Part shown: positions 54,840-61,633 of the stretch, piece after piece
How the letters are laid out: each line of letters starts with the position of its first letter
Numbering within the stretch: position 1 is the stretch's first letter
DNA from: Owenweeksia hongkongensis DSM 17368
GTDB lineage: Bacteria; Bacteroidota; Bacteroidia; Flavobacteriales; Schleiferiaceae
Assembly: GCF_000236705.1 (NCBI RefSeq)
Contig: NC_016599.1
Coordinates: 2,480,001-2,544,000, forward strand
Length of the DNA stretch: 64,000 nucleotides
Direction: 5' to 3'
The notes under the pieces: generated by a model
Databases searched by the model: none
The model's input: only the letters and a program-made list of their open reading frames with translations
What the model was told of the DNA's origin: nothing
Translations under genes and position numbers: made by a program

Positions 54840-56144
54840 TTACTCCAAAGCTGAAGGGTCTGTTTGTATTACGAAATCCTTAATTTTATCAGTATAGTTG
54901 GCCTTACTTACAATTTTCCCGTCAGGGGCTATCAAAATAAAAGAGGGAAAAGCATCAACATTGTAAAGCTGTACCATTCCTCCACTACCATTTTCCTCCC
55001 ATGCATGCAGCCAATCCATTCCATGCTCCTCGATTAACTCATCAAAAGCTTCGCGCTTTGATTTCACCGCAATGGAAATTATTTCAAAAGGTTCCTCCTT
55101 TAGTTCTTCATGCAGTTTTACTAAGTCTGGAATTCCTTTAACACACGGACTGCACCATGTGCCCCAAAAATCAAGTAACACATACTTAGCTTGAAGGTCG
55201 CTGAGCTTCATTTCTTTCCCTGTATCCATTACTTCAAATTCGAAATCCGGGGCATAAAACCCAACAGTAGGACTGATGCTATCCTTTTCAAGATCTACCT
55301 TATCCAAAACAAGCTCCATGTTGGCCCTATCAAAATGACTTATTTCATACCAATCTCCAAAGTAATTTACCCTATCGCCCCGTTTGGCTTTTTCCCATTC
55401 GTGGGTCTTGATCTCATTGTTCAATTGAGTTTTTGTGCTTACCGTAAACGTACTAAAGTCAACCTTAGATGGTGTTACAACAAAGGTTTCATCCCCAAAA
55501 ATACCTTCAGAATATATTGGGAACGTGTAAGCAAGGTATTTTCCGTGTTTTTCTGATTCATTCGAGAAGGTCATAAAAGGAACGCTATCTCTCACTATCC
55601 TATTATTTACGAATAATTCATACTGCATATAAGGAACTTTCTTAATAGTAGATTCCAGACGCTTGACTACCGCGCCCTTTAATGGCTTATAAGATTCTTC
55701 ATCCGAAAAGTCACCATCGGCATCCGTATCCACCATATATTCTACTTTCCCATTATTTTTCTGCCGGTAGATTAGTGTACTAAAACAAGCAATTGGTTCT
55801 GAAGAATACTTGTTGCCTGCGGTATCAAGACCCATTTTTTGAAAGAGATCCGTAAATGTAGAATCTGTAATATTCCCTTCCTTATAATTCTGAAATATGA
55901 ATTGGTTTCTTTGGAACAGAATATCTTTCCTATAGTATTCATTCCAATCTTTTGGAATTCCCGTTAGCTTAGTGTTTGATATTGCCCAAGAGTTCGTTTT
56001 AGGCTGTTTAAAATAGGCGAAGCCCCAACCACCCGGGTAGCCATCTTTCCCAGCTTTCATCTCGGTTTTTACCCTAACCGTTTCTGATTGCGAAAAAGCG
56101 AAGGTTCCAAATAAGCAAAAGATTGCAATGATGATAGTTCTCAT
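54840..56144 (-). CDS. Secreted TlpA-like thioredoxin-fold protein, 434 aa
   Basis: Start at ATG 56144 (MRTIIIAIFCLFGTFAFSQ, a signal peptide); the longer frame begins at a TTG. The N-terminal ~270 residues are unrecognised and beta-rich. The C-terminal ~150 residues are a TlpA/ResA thioredoxin domain with the redox pair WCSPC after VLLDFWGT and the cis-Pro loop DAFPSFIL. It is likely a periplasmic thiol-disulfide reductant. It lies between paaG and paaD; no biochemical link to phenylacetate is evident. Confidence 0.85.
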   Translation of the reverse strand: MRTIIIAIFCLFGTFAFSQSETVRVKTEMKAGKDGYPGGWGFAYFKQPKTNSWAISNTKLTGIPKDWNEYYRKDILFQRNQFIFQNYKEGNITDSTFTDLFQKMGLDTAGNKYSSEPIACFSTLIYRQKNNGKVEYMVDTDADGDFSDEESYKPLKGAVVKRLESTIKKVPYMQYELFVNNRIVRDSVPFMTFSNESEKHGKYLAYTFPIYSEGIFGDETFVVTPSKVDFSTFTVSTKTQLNNEIKTHEWEKAKRGDRVNYFGDWYEISHFDRANMELVLDKVDLEKDSISPTVGFYAPDFEFEVMDTGKEMKLSDLQAKYVLLDFWGTWCSPCVKGIPDLVKLHEELKEEPFEIISIAVKSKREAFDELIEEHGMDWLHAWEENGSGGMVQLYNVDAFPSFILIAPDGKIVSKANYTDKIKDFVIQTDPSALE

Positions 56145-56244
56145 AAAAAGGGTTTTAAACCTCAATTATAAGACTTTTTAGACTACCTGTTTTTTTGATG
56201 AAAATATGTTTACCCAAGTGACATCTCACTTTGCTTAGGCCAAA

Positions 56245-56733
56245 CTAAATACATTTAAAATAATCAAATGGCTCTTTACAGTCCTCACACTTATACAGGG
56301 ATTTACAGGCTGTGGAGCCAAATTGGCTTATCATGGAGGTGTTGGTGGATTTACACTTGGGGCAAGTCACTTGCTTGGCTTTTCCAAATAAAACAGACTT
56401 ATCGGCAGAGCTTCCTTCGGGTGGGGCAATGCCAAATTCCTGAAGTTTTTTCTTGCCATTTTCGGTCATCCAATCGGTAGTCCATGCAGGGGAAAGAATA
56501 GTTTTTACTTCGATTGTCTCTAGGCCTTCTTCCTTTAGCTTTTTGCGAATATTCTCTTCGATTTCATTCATAGCCGGGCATCCACTATAAGTAGGAGTGA
56601 TGGTTACAATGGGATGGTCATGATTAATATCTACATGCCGCACCACACCCAAATCCACTACAGAGAGTACTGGAATTTCAGGATCGGAAACATCCTCTAG
56701 CCATTGCCATATTTGATTTTCGCTTAACACCAT
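56245..56733 (-). CDS. paaD: PaaD: phenylacetyl-CoA epoxidase maturation protein
   Basis: An N-terminal DUF59/MIP18 domain (VSDPEIPVLSVVDLGVVRHV, TYSGCPAMNEIEE) and a C-terminal zinc-ribbon-like tail (CPKCKS ... YKCEDCKEPFDYFKC). PaaD is needed for active PaaABCE, probably in iron or Fe-S supply. 162 residues, normal length. Unlike in enterobacteria it has its own promoter (56758-56765), because a lipoprotein gene and a terminator separate it from paaC. Confidence 0.93.
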   Translation of the reverse strand: MVLSENQIWQWLEDVSDPEIPVLSVVDLGVVRHVDINHDHPIVTITPTYSGCPAMNEIEENIRKKLKEEGLETIEVKTILSPAWTTDWMTENGKKKLQEFGIAPPEGSSADKSVLFGKAKQVTCPKCKSTNTSMISQFGSTACKSLYKCEDCKEPFDYFKCI

Positions 56734-56770: not shown

Positions 56771-57526
56771 TTAAGGGCGCAATATTATTTGTAATCGCCT
56801 ATAAGAAGGAGCAGCAAAACATACCGGCACCACTGTGTTTCTACCTACAACTAATTCTTCCAAAGAAAGTGACTTGCACAACTCATCGGGAACATCTGTG
56901 GCAGTGCCACAATAAGCTACATTGAGCACCAGCAATTTTTGGCACCCAGCCAGCTCAGCCGGGATTTCTTCTAAATCATTACGCTCTAAATCCAGAATTT
57001 CTAGTTTTTCTAAATATTCAACCCCTAAAGGGAATTTCTTCAAATCATTAAAACTTAAGTAGAGATACTTTAAATTTTTGAGCAGCATTATTTCTTGTGG
57101 CAACTCTGTCAAGTTATTATAGGCCAGATTTAACGACTCCAGGCTCTCCAATTGTCCAATTTCCTTTGGCAAGGTTTTCAGATTATTGTGATGAAGGGAA
57201 AGCCTTTTTAATTTTTTAAGATTCCCTATTTCAGGAGGCAATGAGTCCAAGTGATTATTGCTCAACACCAGTTCTTCAAGTGAGTCCAGCATGCCTATTT
57301 CGGGGGGAATACTGTACAGATTACACTTAAAAACTCGCAGTTCTTTCAAATTGGCCAAGCGTGCAATATCTGGAGGTAGAACGCCAATCTTCTTTCGGTA
57401 GAGCACCAGTTTCTCTGTATTCTCTGCATCACGGTATGCTGAGTCAAGACTGTTATATGTCTTCATTTTACAGCCAGCAAGGAGAGCTATAGAACCTATT
57501 AATATCCAAGAGAAAAGTGACTTCAT
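56771..57526 (-). CDS. Leucine-rich-repeat lipoprotein
   Basis: Start at ATG 57526 gives a lipoprotein signal, MKSLFSWILIGSIALLAGC; the longer frame runs into the terminator at 57621-57655. Eight or so LRRs of 23 residues follow (LPPEIGNLKKLKRLSLHHNN, LPKEIGQLESLESLNLAYNN). It is probably anchored in the cell envelope and binds protein. Its place between paaC and paaD is unexpected; it is closed off by a terminator on one side and the paaD promoter on the other. Confidence 0.85.
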   Translation of the reverse strand: MKSLFSWILIGSIALLAGCKMKTYNSLDSAYRDAENTEKLVLYRKKIGVLPPDIARLANLKELRVFKCNLYSIPPEIGMLDSLEELVLSNNHLDSLPPEIGNLKKLKRLSLHHNNLKTLPKEIGQLESLESLNLAYNNLTELPQEIMLLKNLKYLYLSFNDLKKFPLGVEYLEKLEILDLERNDLEEIPAELAGCQKLLVLNVAYCGTATDVPDELCKSLSLEELVVGRNTVVPVCFAAPSYRRLQIILRP

Positions 57527-57620
57527 ATTATATATACAGACCGCCAATTTAGTTTTAGTTGCAAGCTTTTGAAACCATTCTTTAAACTTACGGAAATTGC
57601 GAGCTGTATAAGCCTCCAAC

Positions 57621-57655
57621 AAAAAAGGTCGAACCTAATTGGATCGACCTTTTTT
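57621..57655. terminator. Terminator after paaC (bidirectional)
   Basis: AAAAAAGGTCGA (57621-57632) and TCGACCTTTTTT (57644-57655), a 12-bp perfect stem with an 11-nt loop and T-runs on both strands. It ends the paaA-TA-paaB-paaC transcript. Confidence 0.9.
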
Positions 57656-57674: not shown

Positions 57675-58427
57675 TTACCAACTTGCCTCTGGGTACATTC
57701 TTGGCAAGTGCTGCATTTCGGCTAGCAAAAACCCGAGGTATTCGGTATGCTCTCCTTGCTTGCCTCCACTCTGAAACCAGTCAGCTTCTGGCTTTTCTAA
57801 AGTAGCCATGTCCAATATCATGCTTACTTTTTCGTGCCAGTCAGCTTTAATTTTATTTAAATCTGCACCAATTCCGGCTTTTAGCATCGCTTCGTCTATG
57901 GCGTCCATGGTAAACATTTCGCCTGACCATTCCCAAAGGTCATTGATGGCATTTTGGATACGCTCATGACTTTCTTCTGTTCCATCACCTAAGCGAATCA
58001 CCCACTCAGCACTCCATTGGGCATGGTATGTGATTTCTTTAATCGCCTTTTGCGCTACAGCGCGAATGTGATCATCCTTGCTGTTTAGTAATTCGGTGTA
58101 CAAAAAGTAATTGTAGGTATCAAAAAGAAACTGGCGGGCTATTGTTTTCCCCCAATCGCCATTCTCTAGTTCCAGCAACAATAAGTTGTTATACTCTGTC
58201 ACATCTCTAAAGAATGCCATTTTATCTTCAGTAGACTCGCTTCCTTTTAGTTCAGCCGCATACTGCATTAGCATTCGGGCTTGACCTAGCTGATCCAAAG
58301 CAATGTTTGAAAGAGCGATATCCTGCTCTAAAATAGGACCATGACCACACCACTCAGCTAATCGTTGACCAAGTATCAAAGCGTTGTCTCCAAGGCGCAG
58401 TGTATATTGTAATAATTCGTTTTGCAA
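57675..58427 (-). CDS. paaC: PaaC: structural subunit of phenylacetyl-CoA epoxidase
   Basis: Forms the heterodimeric core with PaaA. 250 residues with LRLGDNALILGQRLAEWCGH, ALDQLGQARMLMQYA and KEITYHAQWSAEWVIRLGDG. The start codon is TTG (58427): translation begins MQNELLQYTLRLGDN, exactly where the family starts, and no nearby ATG or GTG fits. It follows paaB after a 102-bp gap that contains a REP-like palindromic sequence, and is closed by a strong terminator. Confidence 0.95.
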   Translation of the reverse strand: MQNELLQYTLRLGDNALILGQRLAEWCGHGPILEQDIALSNIALDQLGQARMLMQYAAELKGSESTEDKMAFFRDVTEYNNLLLLELENGDWGKTIARQFLFDTYNYFLYTELLNSKDDHIRAVAQKAIKEITYHAQWSAEWVIRLGDGTEESHERIQNAINDLWEWSGEMFTMDAIDEAMLKAGIGADLNKIKADWHEKVSMILDMATLEKPEADWFQSGGKQGEHTEYLGFLLAEMQHLPRMYPEASW

Positions 58428-58449
58428 AACTTTACTTCTTTAACCGTTT

Positions 58450-58498
58450 GTTCTCGATTCCGCTCGAACTGACGTTTTTATATGTCACCCGAAGCGAA
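58450..58498. repeat. REP-like inverted sequence between paaB and paaC
   Basis: GTTCTCGATTCCGCTCGAAC followed by TGACG (58450-58474), then GTCACCCGAAGCGAAAC in inverse sense. It resembles the palindromic intergenic GTC-TTCGAGCGGA-type words often dispersed in Bacteroidota genomes. Confidence 0.4.
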
Positions 58499-58529
58499 AC
58501 CACAAACATTAAACTTAAAATGCCAAAGG

Positions 58530-58820
58530 CTACATGTGTCCCACTTCGTCCGGGATATCGTAAAATGTAGGGTGACGATATACCTTGTCATCTGCTGGAG
58601 TAAACAATGGCTCGCTCTCATCCGGGCTGCTGGCAGTGATTGATTCTGAAGGAACCACCCAAATGCTGATACCCTCACTTCTGCGAGTGTAAACATCGCG
58701 GGCATTTTTTATCGCCATTTCGGCATCAGGAGCATGAAGGCTTCCTACATGTTTATGACTCAAACCATTGCGGGAGCGGATAAACACTTCCCAAATTTTC
58801 CAATTGTCTTTATTGCTCAT
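58530..58820 (-). CDS. paaB: PaaB: phenylacetyl-CoA epoxidase subunit
   Basis: Bridges PaaAC heterodimers in the epoxidase complex. 96 residues, the normal length: WEVFIRSRNGLSHKHVGSLH, DVYTRRSEGISIWVVPS and the C-terminal YRHPTFYDIPDEVGHM. In most genomes it follows paaA directly; here a toxin-antitoxin pair of about 540 bp lies between them, and paaB starts 19 bp after the toxin gene. Confidence 0.95.
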   Translation of the reverse strand: MSNKDNWKIWEVFIRSRNGLSHKHVGSLHAPDAEMAIKNARDVYTRRSEGISIWVVPSESITASSPDESEPLFTPADDKVYRHPTFYDIPDEVGHM

Positions 58821-58839
58821 AAAATCTCTACTATCTTTA

Positions 58840-59133
58840 TTATTTCAACTCTTCGCTGGAGCGCATATCTATGAAATTGGTAACAATCAACTTCTCTTTG
58901 TCAAAATGATAAACCACCCTATAATAACTATATGGAAAGCTGTAACTACCTTGAGTAGGTCCAATCCTTGTTCCAATTTCAGGGTTTCTTGCCAGCTTCT
59001 TTACTATTCCATTTAGCTTGTCAAAAAATTGTGTTGCATGCTTTCCTTCCCAATTTTCCAGAAGATATAAAAGAACCTTGTTCAGCTTTGCTTGAGCTAA
59101 GCTTTCCCAGTATATTTCCCTATATCCTTCCAA
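58840..59133 (-). CDS. RelE/ParE-family toxin
   Basis: 97 residues with the family fold: [59 protein letters not shown]. Family members cleave mRNA on the ribosome (RelE) or poison gyrase (ParE); which applies here cannot be told. The start is probably TTG at 59133: an in-frame stop lies just upstream and no ATG or GTG fits. It overlaps the antitoxin gene by 37 bp and precedes paaB by 19 bp. Confidence 0.88.
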   Translation of the reverse strand: MEGYREIYWESLAQAKLNKVLLYLLENWEGKHATQFFDKLNGIVKKLARNPEIGTRIGPTQGSYSFPYSYYRVVYHFDKEKLIVTNFIDMRSSEELK

Positions 59134-59381
59134 ATATGCTCCATCACTTTATCATGAGGAATCAAGTTTTCCGGATTCTTAGAGCGCTCATATCCCTCAT
59201 TAATTTCACGTATCTCTTTTTCTGAAAACAAAGCCTGTTCTGCCATTGAAGCATCATTTGCAACTACTCTGGCCTCGTAACTTGCCAGCTCTTCTCGAAG
59301 TTGAACCAAGATAGTTTCATCCGCTTCATTCTCCAAAATGTAGTTGACTTTCTTCAGTATTTCTTTCTTTACAGAACTCAC
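59097..59381 (-). CDS. Probable antitoxin of the RelE/ParE pair
   Basis: 94 residues, acidic and helical ([40 protein letters not shown]), ending [17 protein letters not shown] infer the antitoxin role from its position directly upstream of and overlapping the toxin, and from its size and charge; I recognise no named antitoxin domain. The start is GTG at 59381, inside the paaA stop as the overlap GTGA, so its translation is coupled to paaA. Confidence 0.75.
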
Positions 59382-60334
59382 GCTGCGCTACTTTTCTTCT
59401 TTCTTCTTTCGGCTTCTTTTTCTGCGTAAGCATTGGCTGCTTCACGTACCCATGCACCATCGTCATGCGCTTTGTTTCGGGCTATAAGACGTTGCTTATT
59501 GCACTTTCCGTTACCTTTTATCACATTGTAAAACTCCTCCCAGTCAATTTCGCCATGCTCATAATGACCAGTTTCTTCGTTCCATTTCAAGTCTTTATCA
59601 GGAATAGTAAGACCTAAAAACTCAGCCTGAGGAACCGTTTTATCAATAAACTCCTGACGAAGCTCATCATTTGATTTACGTTTAATCTTCCACTTCATAC
59701 TCTGGGCAGAGTTTGGCGAAGCATCATCAGTAGGGCCAAACATCATTAGCGATGGCCACCACCAGCGGTTAAGCGCATCTTGTGCCATTTGCTTTTGAAC
59801 CGGACTGCCCTGAGCCAAAGTCATGGTAATTTCATACCCCTGACGTTGGTGAAAGCTTTCTTCTTTACAAATCTTAACCATTGCACGAGCATATGGGCCA
59901 TATGATGTACGGCATAGCATCACCTGATTGGCAATTGCTGCACCATCTACCAACCAACCAATAGCGCCTATATCGGCCCAGGTTGGGGTAGGATAATTAA
60001 ATATGCTTGAGTATTTCGCCTTTCCGCTAAGGAGGTCCTCTACCATATCCATGCGGTCGGCTGCTAAAGTTTCAGCTGCAGAATATAGATATAAACCGTG
60101 GCCAGCTTCATCCTGCACTTTGGCAAGTAGAGCAACTTTTCTTCTCAAAGAAGGTGCTCTTGTAATCCAGTTTGCCTCGGGCAACATACCTACTACTTCT
60201 GAGTGGGCGTGCTGGCTTATTTGGCGAATTAGTGTTTTTCGATACTTCTCCGGCATCCAATCTTTTGGCTCCACCTTGTTTTCTGCATCTACATATTGCT
60301 GAAAACGTTCTTCCAAATTCATTTCTTTCGTCAT
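59378..60334 (-). CDS. paaA: PaaA: catalytic di-iron subunit of phenylacetyl-CoA epoxidase
   Basis: Epoxidises the ring of phenylacetyl-CoA using O2. Iron-binding Glu/His are seen in [20 protein letters not shown] and [18 protein letters not shown]; the substrate-binding and C-terminal regions ([20 protein letters not shown]) are intact. I use ATG 60334 ([11 protein letters not shown]) rather than the GTG two codons upstream; ATG 60322 is possible. A perfect TATCTTTG promoter sits 24 nt upstream. It is followed by the translationally coupled antitoxin gene. paaE is transcribed divergently. Confidence 0.96.
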
Positions 60335-60358
60335 TGTCACACGGATATTAGTGATTTA

Positions 60359-60366
60359 CAAAGATA
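60359..60366 (-). promoter_or_regulatory. -7 element (TATCTTTG) of the paaA transcript
   Basis: A perfect TAnnTTTG match on the minus strand, 24 nt before the ATG at 60334. The imperfect palindrome GTGCAAATATTACAC (60369-60383) sits just upstream of it. Confidence 0.65.
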
Positions 60367-60431
60367 GGGTGCAAATATTACACTTCCATACTTAGCATAA
60401 AAAGGCTTGCGCAAGGTTTCTTTAAACAATA

Positions 60432-60463
60432 TTGAGCCATTACGTAAGGGGGTAGTATATTTG
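60432..60463 (+). promoter_or_regulatory. Promoter of paaE
   Basis: TTG (60432-60434), a 21-bp spacer and TATATTTG (60456-60463, perfect -7), ending 21 nt before the paaE ATG. Confidence 0.7.
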
Positions 60464-60484
60464 CTGCCCTGAAATTATACTATT

Positions 60485-61633
60485 ATGCTGAATTTCTTCA
60501 AGAAAGCAAAAGATAAAAAGGATTCACTCCTTACCAATGAAAAATCGTCACGCAGAGCTCGTTTTCATAGCCTTCGCGTTTCGGACATTACTCGCGAAAC
60601 TTCGGACTGTATCTCTGTAGCCTTTGATGTGCCCGAGGATTTGGTTGATGACTATAACTTTATTCCTGGCCAATACCTTACGCTGGAAAAGGAAATTGGT
60701 GGTGAGAAAATCAGACGTTCTTACTCACTTTGTTCAAGCCCTGTAGATGGCGAATTACGTGTAGCAATCAAGCAAGTTCCTGGTGGTAAATTTTCAACTT
60801 TTGCCAATCAAGAACTTACTGTAGGCACCGAAATAGATGTAATGACTCCCGAAGGGAAGTTCTACACAAAGCTAGATCCGGCCAACAAGAAAAACTATGT
60901 AGCTTTTGCTGCTGGTTCTGGAATTACACCCATCTTTTCGATTATAAAATCGGTAATGGCCATTGAGCCAGAAAGTACTTTCACTTTGTTTTTTGGAAAC
61001 AAAACTACCCAGTCTGTAATGTTCCGCGATGCTATTGATGCATTGAAAAATGAGCACATGAATAGACTTGAGGTTCACCATATTCTTAGCCGTGAAGATC
61101 AAGGTACAGATATGCTGAAAGGTCACTTGGATGAGGCGAAGTGTATCTCTTTCTCTCAAAAATTCTTCAACATCAATGAAGTTGATGAGTATTTCATCTG
61201 TGGACCAGAAGCCATGATTAACTGTATTAATGACAGTTTACTTAAGCTTGGTGCTGATAAATCTCACGTTCATTATGAACTATTTACTTCTCCTTCGCAA
61301 AACATTGCCCACAAAACCAAAGTGTCTGCTGAAAAGAAAAGCGATGCTTTAACAAGTGCTGTTACCATTATTCTTGATGGAGAAGAAACTCACTTTGACA
61401 TTGCTTCAAATGGCAAAAATGTGCTGGACGCTGCTCTTGATGCTGGTGCAGATGTACCTTATGCCTGTAAAGGTGCCGTGTGCTGTACTTGTCGCGCCAA
61501 GGTGCTTGAGGGTTCCGTAGAAATGGACATGAACTATGCCCTTGAAGATGATGAAGTAGAAGAAGGTTTTGTACTTACCTGCCAAACTCACCCAACCAGT
61601 GAGAAGGTGGTGATAAGCTACGATGAGCAGTAG
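60485..61633 (+). CDS. paaE: PaaE: reductase subunit of phenylacetyl-CoA epoxidase
   Basis: Passes electrons from NADPH through FAD and a 2Fe-2S centre to PaaA. FAD motif RRSYSLCSSP, NAD(P) motif AAGSGITPIFSIIKS, and a C-terminal plant-type ferredoxin domain with the cluster ligands in CKGAVCCTCRAKV and a distal Cys in VLTCQTH. 382 residues, slightly longer than the ~356 of E. coli PaaE because of a Lys-rich N-terminal segment. It is divergent from paaA, with a separate promoter. Confidence 0.95.
   Translation: MLNFFKKAKDKKDSLLTNEKSSRRARFHSLRVSDITRETSDCISVAFDVPEDLVDDYNFIPGQYLTLEKEIGGEKIRRSYSLCSSPVDGELRVAIKQVPGGKFSTFANQELTVGTEIDVMTPEGKFYTKLDPANKKNYVAFAAGSGITPIFSIIKSVMAIEPESTFTLFFGNKTTQSVMFRDAIDALKNEHMNRLEVHHILSREDQGTDMLKGHLDEAKCISFSQKFFNINEVDEYFICGPEAMINCINDSLLKLGADKSHVHYELFTSPSQNIAHKTKVSAEKKSDALTSAVTIILDGEETHFDIASNGKNVLDAALDAGADVPYACKGAVCCTCRAKVLEGSVEMDMNYALEDDEVEEGFVLTCQTHPTSEKVVISYDEQ

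What the first reader, a model, noticed from the sequence alone, without database searches (positions are those of the whole stretch)
58840..59381. Toxin-antitoxin pair wedged between paaA and paaB, with antitoxin start fused to the paaA stop
PaaA and PaaB belong to one epoxidase complex and normally have adjacent genes. Here a RelE/ParE toxin and its probable antitoxin (GTG start overlapping the paaA TGA as GTGA; toxin start 37 bp inside the antitoxin gene) separate them, and paaB follows 19 bp later, before any terminator. Antitoxin supply may thus depend on paaA translation, so falling paa expression could free the toxin and penalise loss of the pathway. Alternatively it is a passive addiction module that inserted without breaking paaA.
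Basis: partly seen in the sequence, partly recalled or inferred. Interest (0 to 1): 0.72.

Follow-up and report, generated by a model that had tools for sequence, protein, structure and literature searches.

The report
Toxin-antitoxin pair inserted inside paa operon
In one marine Bacteroidota genome a small toxin-antitoxin gene pair has landed exactly at the end of a phenylacetate-degradation gene, using that gene's last bases for its own start codon and apparently bringing no promoter; it is a clean new example of a known but poorly explained habit of such pairs, inserting between the genes of an operon.

Summary
On the minus strand, paaA (59378-60340), an antitoxin ORF (59097-59381, GTG start inside GTGA), a ParE-like toxin (58840-59133, TTG start) and paaB (58530-58820) follow each other. 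The pair is an insertion specific to this lineage. A congener with 99.4% identical PaaA and 100% identical PaaB has paaA and paaB adjacent, and none of 78 relatives whose junction could be measured has the pair there. DNA similarity to the congener ends at the first base of the paaA stop codon, so the antitoxin start codon borrows its first base from paaA; intact relatives of this antitoxin start with ATG. The insert therefore carries no leader or promoter of its own. The only consensus promoter box on that strand, conserved in most relatives, lies upstream of paaA. The pair is most likely expressed with the paa operon, the antitoxin by termination-reinitiation. The proposed penalty for losing the pathway is untested. 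The same TA family has done this at other junctions: AAA ATPase/VWA (empty in 16 relatives) and rhomboid/ispG. TA insertion between operon genes is already described (relA-mazEF-mazG, dinB-yafNO-yafP), so this is a new member of a known kind.

The parts
59378..60340 (-). paaA, phenylacetyl-CoA epoxidase subunit; its TGA stop (59380-59378) overlaps the antitoxin GTG (59381-59379)
   Evidence: TIGR02156 E 5e-161; 99.4% identical to PaaA of congener G001
60359..60366 (-). TATCTTTG, Bacteroidota -7 promoter box upstream of paaA; the only strict TAnnTTTG on the minus strand between 58400 and 60600
   Evidence: conserved at -36 to -49 from the same codon in nearly all close relatives
58840..59379 (-). 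inserted segment (left edge sharp; right edge anywhere from the toxin stop at 58840 to about 58825)
   Evidence: alignment to empty site of G001: similarity resumes only at 58824; spacer comparison cannot fix the right edge
59097..59381 (-). antitoxin ORF, 94 aa, GTG start of which the first base (59381) is a conserved paaA base; homologous to antitoxins carrying an N-L-I-x-H-E-x-V-M motif
   Evidence: own E 2.3e-25 to a profile that includes it; single-sequence tblastn to G198 3e-6
58840..59133 (-). ParE-like toxin ORF, 97 aa, TTG start, overlaps antitoxin gene by 37 nt
   Evidence: PF05016 E 2.2e-9; 37% identity to toxin of G266 (E 7.5e-10); profile matches solved ParE toxins
58530..58820 (-). 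paaB, phenylacetyl-CoA epoxidase subunit, 19 nt after the toxin stop
   Evidence: TIGR02157 E 3e-43; 100% identical protein in G001
57675..58427 (-). paaC
   Evidence: TIGR02158 E 1e-90
56245..56733 (-). paaD
   Evidence: TIGR02159 E 1.6e-61
60485..61633 (+). paaE, divergent from paaA
   Evidence: TIGR02160 E 2e-138

Best explanation
A horizontally acquired type II toxin-antitoxin pair (ParE-like toxin with an uncharacterised Bacteroidota antitoxin) inserted at the paaA stop codon after this lineage split from its nearest sequenced congener (shown). The inserted DNA begins inside the antitoxin start codon, so the pair has no leader, promoter or operator of its own (shown for the DNA; that no promoter lies inside paaA is inferred). 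It is transcribed from the paaA promoter as paaA-antitoxin-toxin-paaB (inferred). Ribosomes finishing paaA re-initiate at the overlapping GTG to make antitoxin; the toxin, with a UUG start in a poor context 37 nt before the antitoxin stop, is made at a lower rate and stays neutralised (inferred). The pair persists as a small selfish module that rides on the operon. Whether a fall in paa expression ever frees the toxin is unknown.
For: Empty site in congener G001: 99.4% PaaA, 100% PaaB, gap-free DNA match up to base 59380, resuming at 58824. The TA genes are absent from all 149 relatives searched except the window's own genome (antitoxin; toxin only as 22-29% identical distant homologues). None of 78 measured paaA-paaB junctions holds the pair. 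ParE identity by Pfam and by profile against solved structures. The same antitoxin-toxin pairing occurs in other Bacteroidota. Relatives of the antitoxin start with ATG, the only exceptions being truncated remnants. A promoter box stands only before paaA and is conserved in position. Of 53 antitoxin genes scored as free-standing, 14 carry the box within 80 nt upstream, against about 5% expected by shuffling. The antitoxin start has the favourable A at -3 and the toxin start has T (PMC6847099 for the rule). Overlaps of 1-4 nt couple translation, and about 20 nt of spacing abolishes it (PMC10666635). Parallel insertions with empty sites exist at other junctions.
Against: No expression or toxicity data. 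Absence of a strict promoter box in about 2.2 kb of one strand is weak evidence, since about one is expected by chance (63 in 128 kb of both strands) and other sigma factors exist. Both start codons are weak (GTG, TTG), which also fits a decaying pair. Termination-reinitiation rules come from E. coli and Haloferax, not Flavobacteriales. The donor is unknown: no close relative was found in the genome, viral or plasmid collections.
Confidence: 0.72

Rival explanations
1. One reading: the pair is a conditional penalty. Because antitoxin supply depends on paaA transcription and translation, falling paa expression or loss of the operon frees the stable toxin and selects for keeping the pathway on.
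For: Leaderless insertion and GTGA overlap tie antitoxin production to paaA. The general addiction logic of type II systems is established knowledge.
Against: The toxin lies on the same transcript, so its synthesis falls together with the antitoxin. A catabolic operon that is normally switched off would make such a pair costly. In E. coli, operons with and without embedded TA pairs both work, and no functional link was found (PMC7167474).
Confidence: 0.15
2. The pair is inactive or decaying: after insertion it lost its ATG starts and its own regulation and is tolerated as a harmless passenger.
For: GTG and TTG starts, poor initiation context of the toxin. Decay of the same family is seen elsewhere: G554 keeps only the antitoxin's C-terminal half and G442 has a stop inside the toxin frame.
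Against: Both frames are intact over their full length and keep the residues invariant among relatives.
Confidence: 0.22
3. The two ORFs are an old, functional part of paa operons that the congener and others lost.
For: None beyond their position inside the operon.
Against: Absent from all 78 measured junctions across the family and order, and no remnant in G001: its spacer aligns to the insert no better than shuffled sequence.
Confidence: 0.02
4. The pair arrived as a gene cassette or on a transposon.
For: TA pairs are common cargo of such elements (general knowledge).
Against: No target duplication or terminal inverted repeat above chance, no transposase or integrase next to it, and coding sequence starts at the very edge of the insert.
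Confidence: 0.05

Closest known systems
Operon-embedded type II TA pairs of E. coli: mazEF in relA-mazG, yafNO in dinB-yafP, ccd in folA-apaH (reviewed in PMC7167474)
   Same: TA pair present between two co-oriented genes in some strains, with the undisturbed junction in others; neighbours functionally unrelated; route of insertion unknown.
   Different: Here the insert begins inside the antitoxin start codon, takes its first base from the upstream gene and overlaps its stop by 4 nt, so no TA promoter or operator was brought in. Different toxin and antitoxin families, different phylum.
ParE toxins of parDE systems (PF05016; solved examples 3kxe, 5cw7, 8c24)
   Same: Sequence family and position after an antitoxin gene.
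   Different: Partner is not a recognisable ParD; target (gyrase or mRNA) is untested.
Putative addiction module component TIGR02574
   Same: An antitoxin of the same family in G198 matches it weakly (E 0.002).
   Different: Below the curated cut-off, and the window's antitoxin does not match at all.

Membership tests
Type II toxin-antitoxin pair | Small toxin gene of a known toxin superfamily next to a small antitoxin gene, same strand | tested here: met
Type II toxin-antitoxin pair | Toxin inhibits growth, antitoxin neutralises it by binding | not testable with these tools
   No expression data
Type II toxin-antitoxin pair | Own autoregulated promoter (usual, though not strictly defining) | tested here: inconclusive
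   Insert starts at the start codon and no strict promoter box stands before the pair, so it looks absent; a promoter of another type inside paaA is not excluded
ParE toxin (PF05016) | Score above the curated cut-off | tested here: met
   38.2 bits against 23
ParE toxin (PF05016) | Poisons DNA gyrase (ParE) rather than cutting mRNA (RelE) | not testable with these tools
   Profile prefers solved ParE toxins, which is only a lead; the single-sequence fold was too poor to use (pLDDT 50)
TIGR02574 addiction module component | Score above the curated cut-off | tested here: not met
   Window antitoxin no match; relative in G198 18.1 bits against 31.9
Intercistronic TA insertion (relA-mazEF-mazG type) | Undisturbed gene pair in close relatives | tested here: met
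Intercistronic TA insertion (relA-mazEF-mazG type) | Transcribed together with the neighbours | not testable with these tools
   Only sequence evidence
Transposon or integron cassette cargo | Terminal repeats, target duplication or recombinase | tested here: not met
   no such gene in the paa region

The most novel reading that the evidence does not exclude
One Bacteroidota TA family repeatedly inserts, start codon to stop codon, at tight junctions between co-translated operon genes (paaA/paaB; AAA ATPase/VWA; rhomboid/ispG), giving up its own promoter and making its antitoxin by re-initiation from the host gene, so that the host operon, in one case with the essential isoprenoid gene ispG, cannot be silenced or cleanly lose the pair without risk.
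Probability: 0.15. Interest if true: 0.7.

Novelty: new member of a known kind. Interest (0 to 1): 0.42.

Why it matters
How TA pairs move and choose insertion sites is stated to be unresolved (PMC7167474). This locus gives a filled and an empty site with a sharp left edge, plus two further sites of the same family, one with a near-identical empty sister and one with present, absent and decayed versions among close species. That makes insertion, maintenance and loss at operon junctions directly comparable. It also offers a natural case of a TA pair with no sign of an autoregulated promoter.

Tried and rejected
Scans of genome and viral contigs with the antitoxin, of genome contigs with the toxin, and of plasmid records with both found no close relatives, so the donor is unknown. 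A toxin alignment was too diverse for a pattern scan. The idea that the insert went in exactly before an ancestral TAA, leaving TAAAGATAGTAGAGATTTT as the old spacer, was tested against the congeners' spacers and is not supported beyond chance (P 0.17 against G003). The idea that G001 carries a deletion remnant of the pair was tested and rejected. Repeats or target duplications at the edges: only chance-level matches. Single-sequence structure prediction of the toxin failed (pLDDT 50), so no fold search was made. Enrichment of the family at operon junctions cannot be claimed: three independent junctions are tight on both sides, most other family members stand free, and no proper background was computed.

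Full report
What is there. The window is part of a single 4,000,057-base contig; that length equals the published Owenweeksia hongkongensis type-strain chromosome (PMC3570807), so the identification is very likely but rests on length. On the minus strand the order is paaA (59378-60340), antitoxin ORF (59097-59381), toxin ORF (58840-59133), paaB (58530-58820), paaC, an LRR protein gene, paaD, with paaE divergent.

It is a TA pair. The toxin passes the Pfam cut-off for ParE_toxin and a profile of it with its relatives matches solved ParE toxins best (E 1e-6). The antitoxin alone matches no curated family, but in other Bacteroidota ParE-like toxins are preceded by homologous antitoxins with a shared motif near the C-terminus (NLIPHEQVM in G198 and G409; NLIPHDKVM here). 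A profile search found such antitoxins in 58 of 396 genomes of the phylum. The residues invariant in the toxin alignment are all kept here.

It is an insertion. Congener G001 has PaaA 99.4% and PaaB 100% identical and nearby DNA about 90-92% identical, with 43 bases (stop codon included) between the last paaA codon and paaB. The gap-free match ends at base 59380, the T of the paaA stop; 59379 is the first foreign base. G001 reads GCG TAA, the window GCG TGA GTT. The G that starts the antitoxin GTG (59381) is therefore the conserved third base of the last alanine codon of paaA. Every intact relative of the antitoxin starts with ATG, so the GTG is most simply a by-product of the junction. The right edge is not fixed: it lies between the toxin stop (58840) and about 58825, and comparison with the congeners' spacers is not significant. 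Across the family and order, 78 junctions were measured in distinct genomes (86 loci, eight of them duplicates). 76 have 114 nt or less. The two longer ones hold unrelated ORFs: a four-helix-bundle 23S rRNA intervening-sequence protein in G123 and an unidentified 133-aa ORF in G092. The TA genes are absent from G001 and all other relatives searched (only 22-29% identical distant toxin homologues appear).

How it is probably expressed. The only strict Bacteroidota promoter box (TAnnTTTG; consensus from PMC6847099 and PMC9723704) on the minus strand from 58400 to 60600 is TATCTTTG at 60359-60366. It is kept at the same distance from paaA in nearly all close relatives. About one box is expected by chance in that length, so the absence elsewhere is weak evidence alone; its conserved place is the stronger point. 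Among free-standing relatives of the antitoxin gene, 14 of 53 have such a box within 80 nt upstream, against about 5% expected by shuffling. The automatic free/tandem label in that call misfiled a few loci, G198 and the window among them. The paa copy cannot have brought one, since the insert starts in its start codon. A 4-nt overlap is the classic arrangement for termination-reinitiation, and about 20 nt of spacing abolishes it in tested species (PMC10666635). In Flavobacteria, A at -3 favours initiation (PMC6847099): the antitoxin has it, the toxin (TTG, T at -3) does not. This predicts more antitoxin than toxin. All of this is inference from sequence.

Not a one-off. The antitoxin's best relative (G198) lies in a second operon wedge: 29 nt after an AAA ATPase gene and, through its toxin, 3 nt before a VWA-domain gene. 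Sixteen family members with a cleanly measured junction have -1 to 77 nt there and no TA. The nearest, G390 (94% identical ATPase), has the two genes overlapping as TGATG. In a third group (f61) the pair sits 5-17 nt after a rhomboid gene and directly before or overlapping the start of ispG. It is present in six genomes of two genera, absent in seven (gap 2-62 nt), and reduced to half an antitoxin in G554; in G442 the toxin frame holds a stop. Gain and loss order there was not resolved on a tree. Most other members of the family stand free, so no preference for operon junctions is claimed.

Comparison with the known. TA pairs between operon genes with undisturbed counterparts in other strains are described for relA-mazEF-mazG, dinB-yafNO-yafP and folA-ccd-apaH, with no functional link to the neighbours and an unknown route of insertion (PMC7167474). 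The paa case works like these and meets the test of an undisturbed junction in close relatives. It differs in bringing no leader and in taking its start codon from the host gene. The toxin is on the same transcript, and the well-studied parallels argue for a passenger.

Noticed in passing
L040/L158 (G198), TA between AAA ATPase and VWA genes: Same TA family inserted into a junction that in sister G390 is a TGATG overlap; 16 relatives lack it.
   Followed up: yes
L045, L182-L197 (family f61), rhomboid-ispG junction: Same TA family present in six genomes of two genera, absent in seven, decayed to half an antitoxin in G554; the toxin stop abuts or overlaps the ispG start.
   Followed up: partly
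L108:992-1339 (G123): A 23S rRNA intervening-sequence (four-helix bundle) protein gene lies between paaA and paaB in another member of the order, so this junction has taken other inserts.
   Followed up: partly
L117:1080-1481 and L113:895-1491: Unidentified ORFs (133 aa and 198 aa) directly after paaA in G092 and G139; no Pfam match.
   Followed up: no
window 54840-56165: Thioredoxin-like secreted protein gene between paaD and paaG; G001 has about 2.0 kb of unalignable DNA at this place, so content differs between close relatives.
   Followed up: no
window 56771-57622: Leucine-rich-repeat lipoprotein-like gene between paaC and paaD, shared by the three congeners and one other genus.
   Followed up: partly
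L067 (G000:C1 near 232400): Another TA-like pair of the same genome (ParE-family toxin, YefM-like upstream ORF) has its own leader with GTACAGGATGCTGTAC palindrome and TATCTTTG box, a contrast to the leaderless paa pair.
   Followed up: no
L076 and L077 (G004, G016): paaA stands alone next to a DNA ligase-like gene with no paaB beside it.
   Followed up: no
L003, paaA-paaB spacer of G001: Spacer of 40 nt after the stop contains CCCCAAGGGG and resembles neither the window nor the other congeners.
   Followed up: partly
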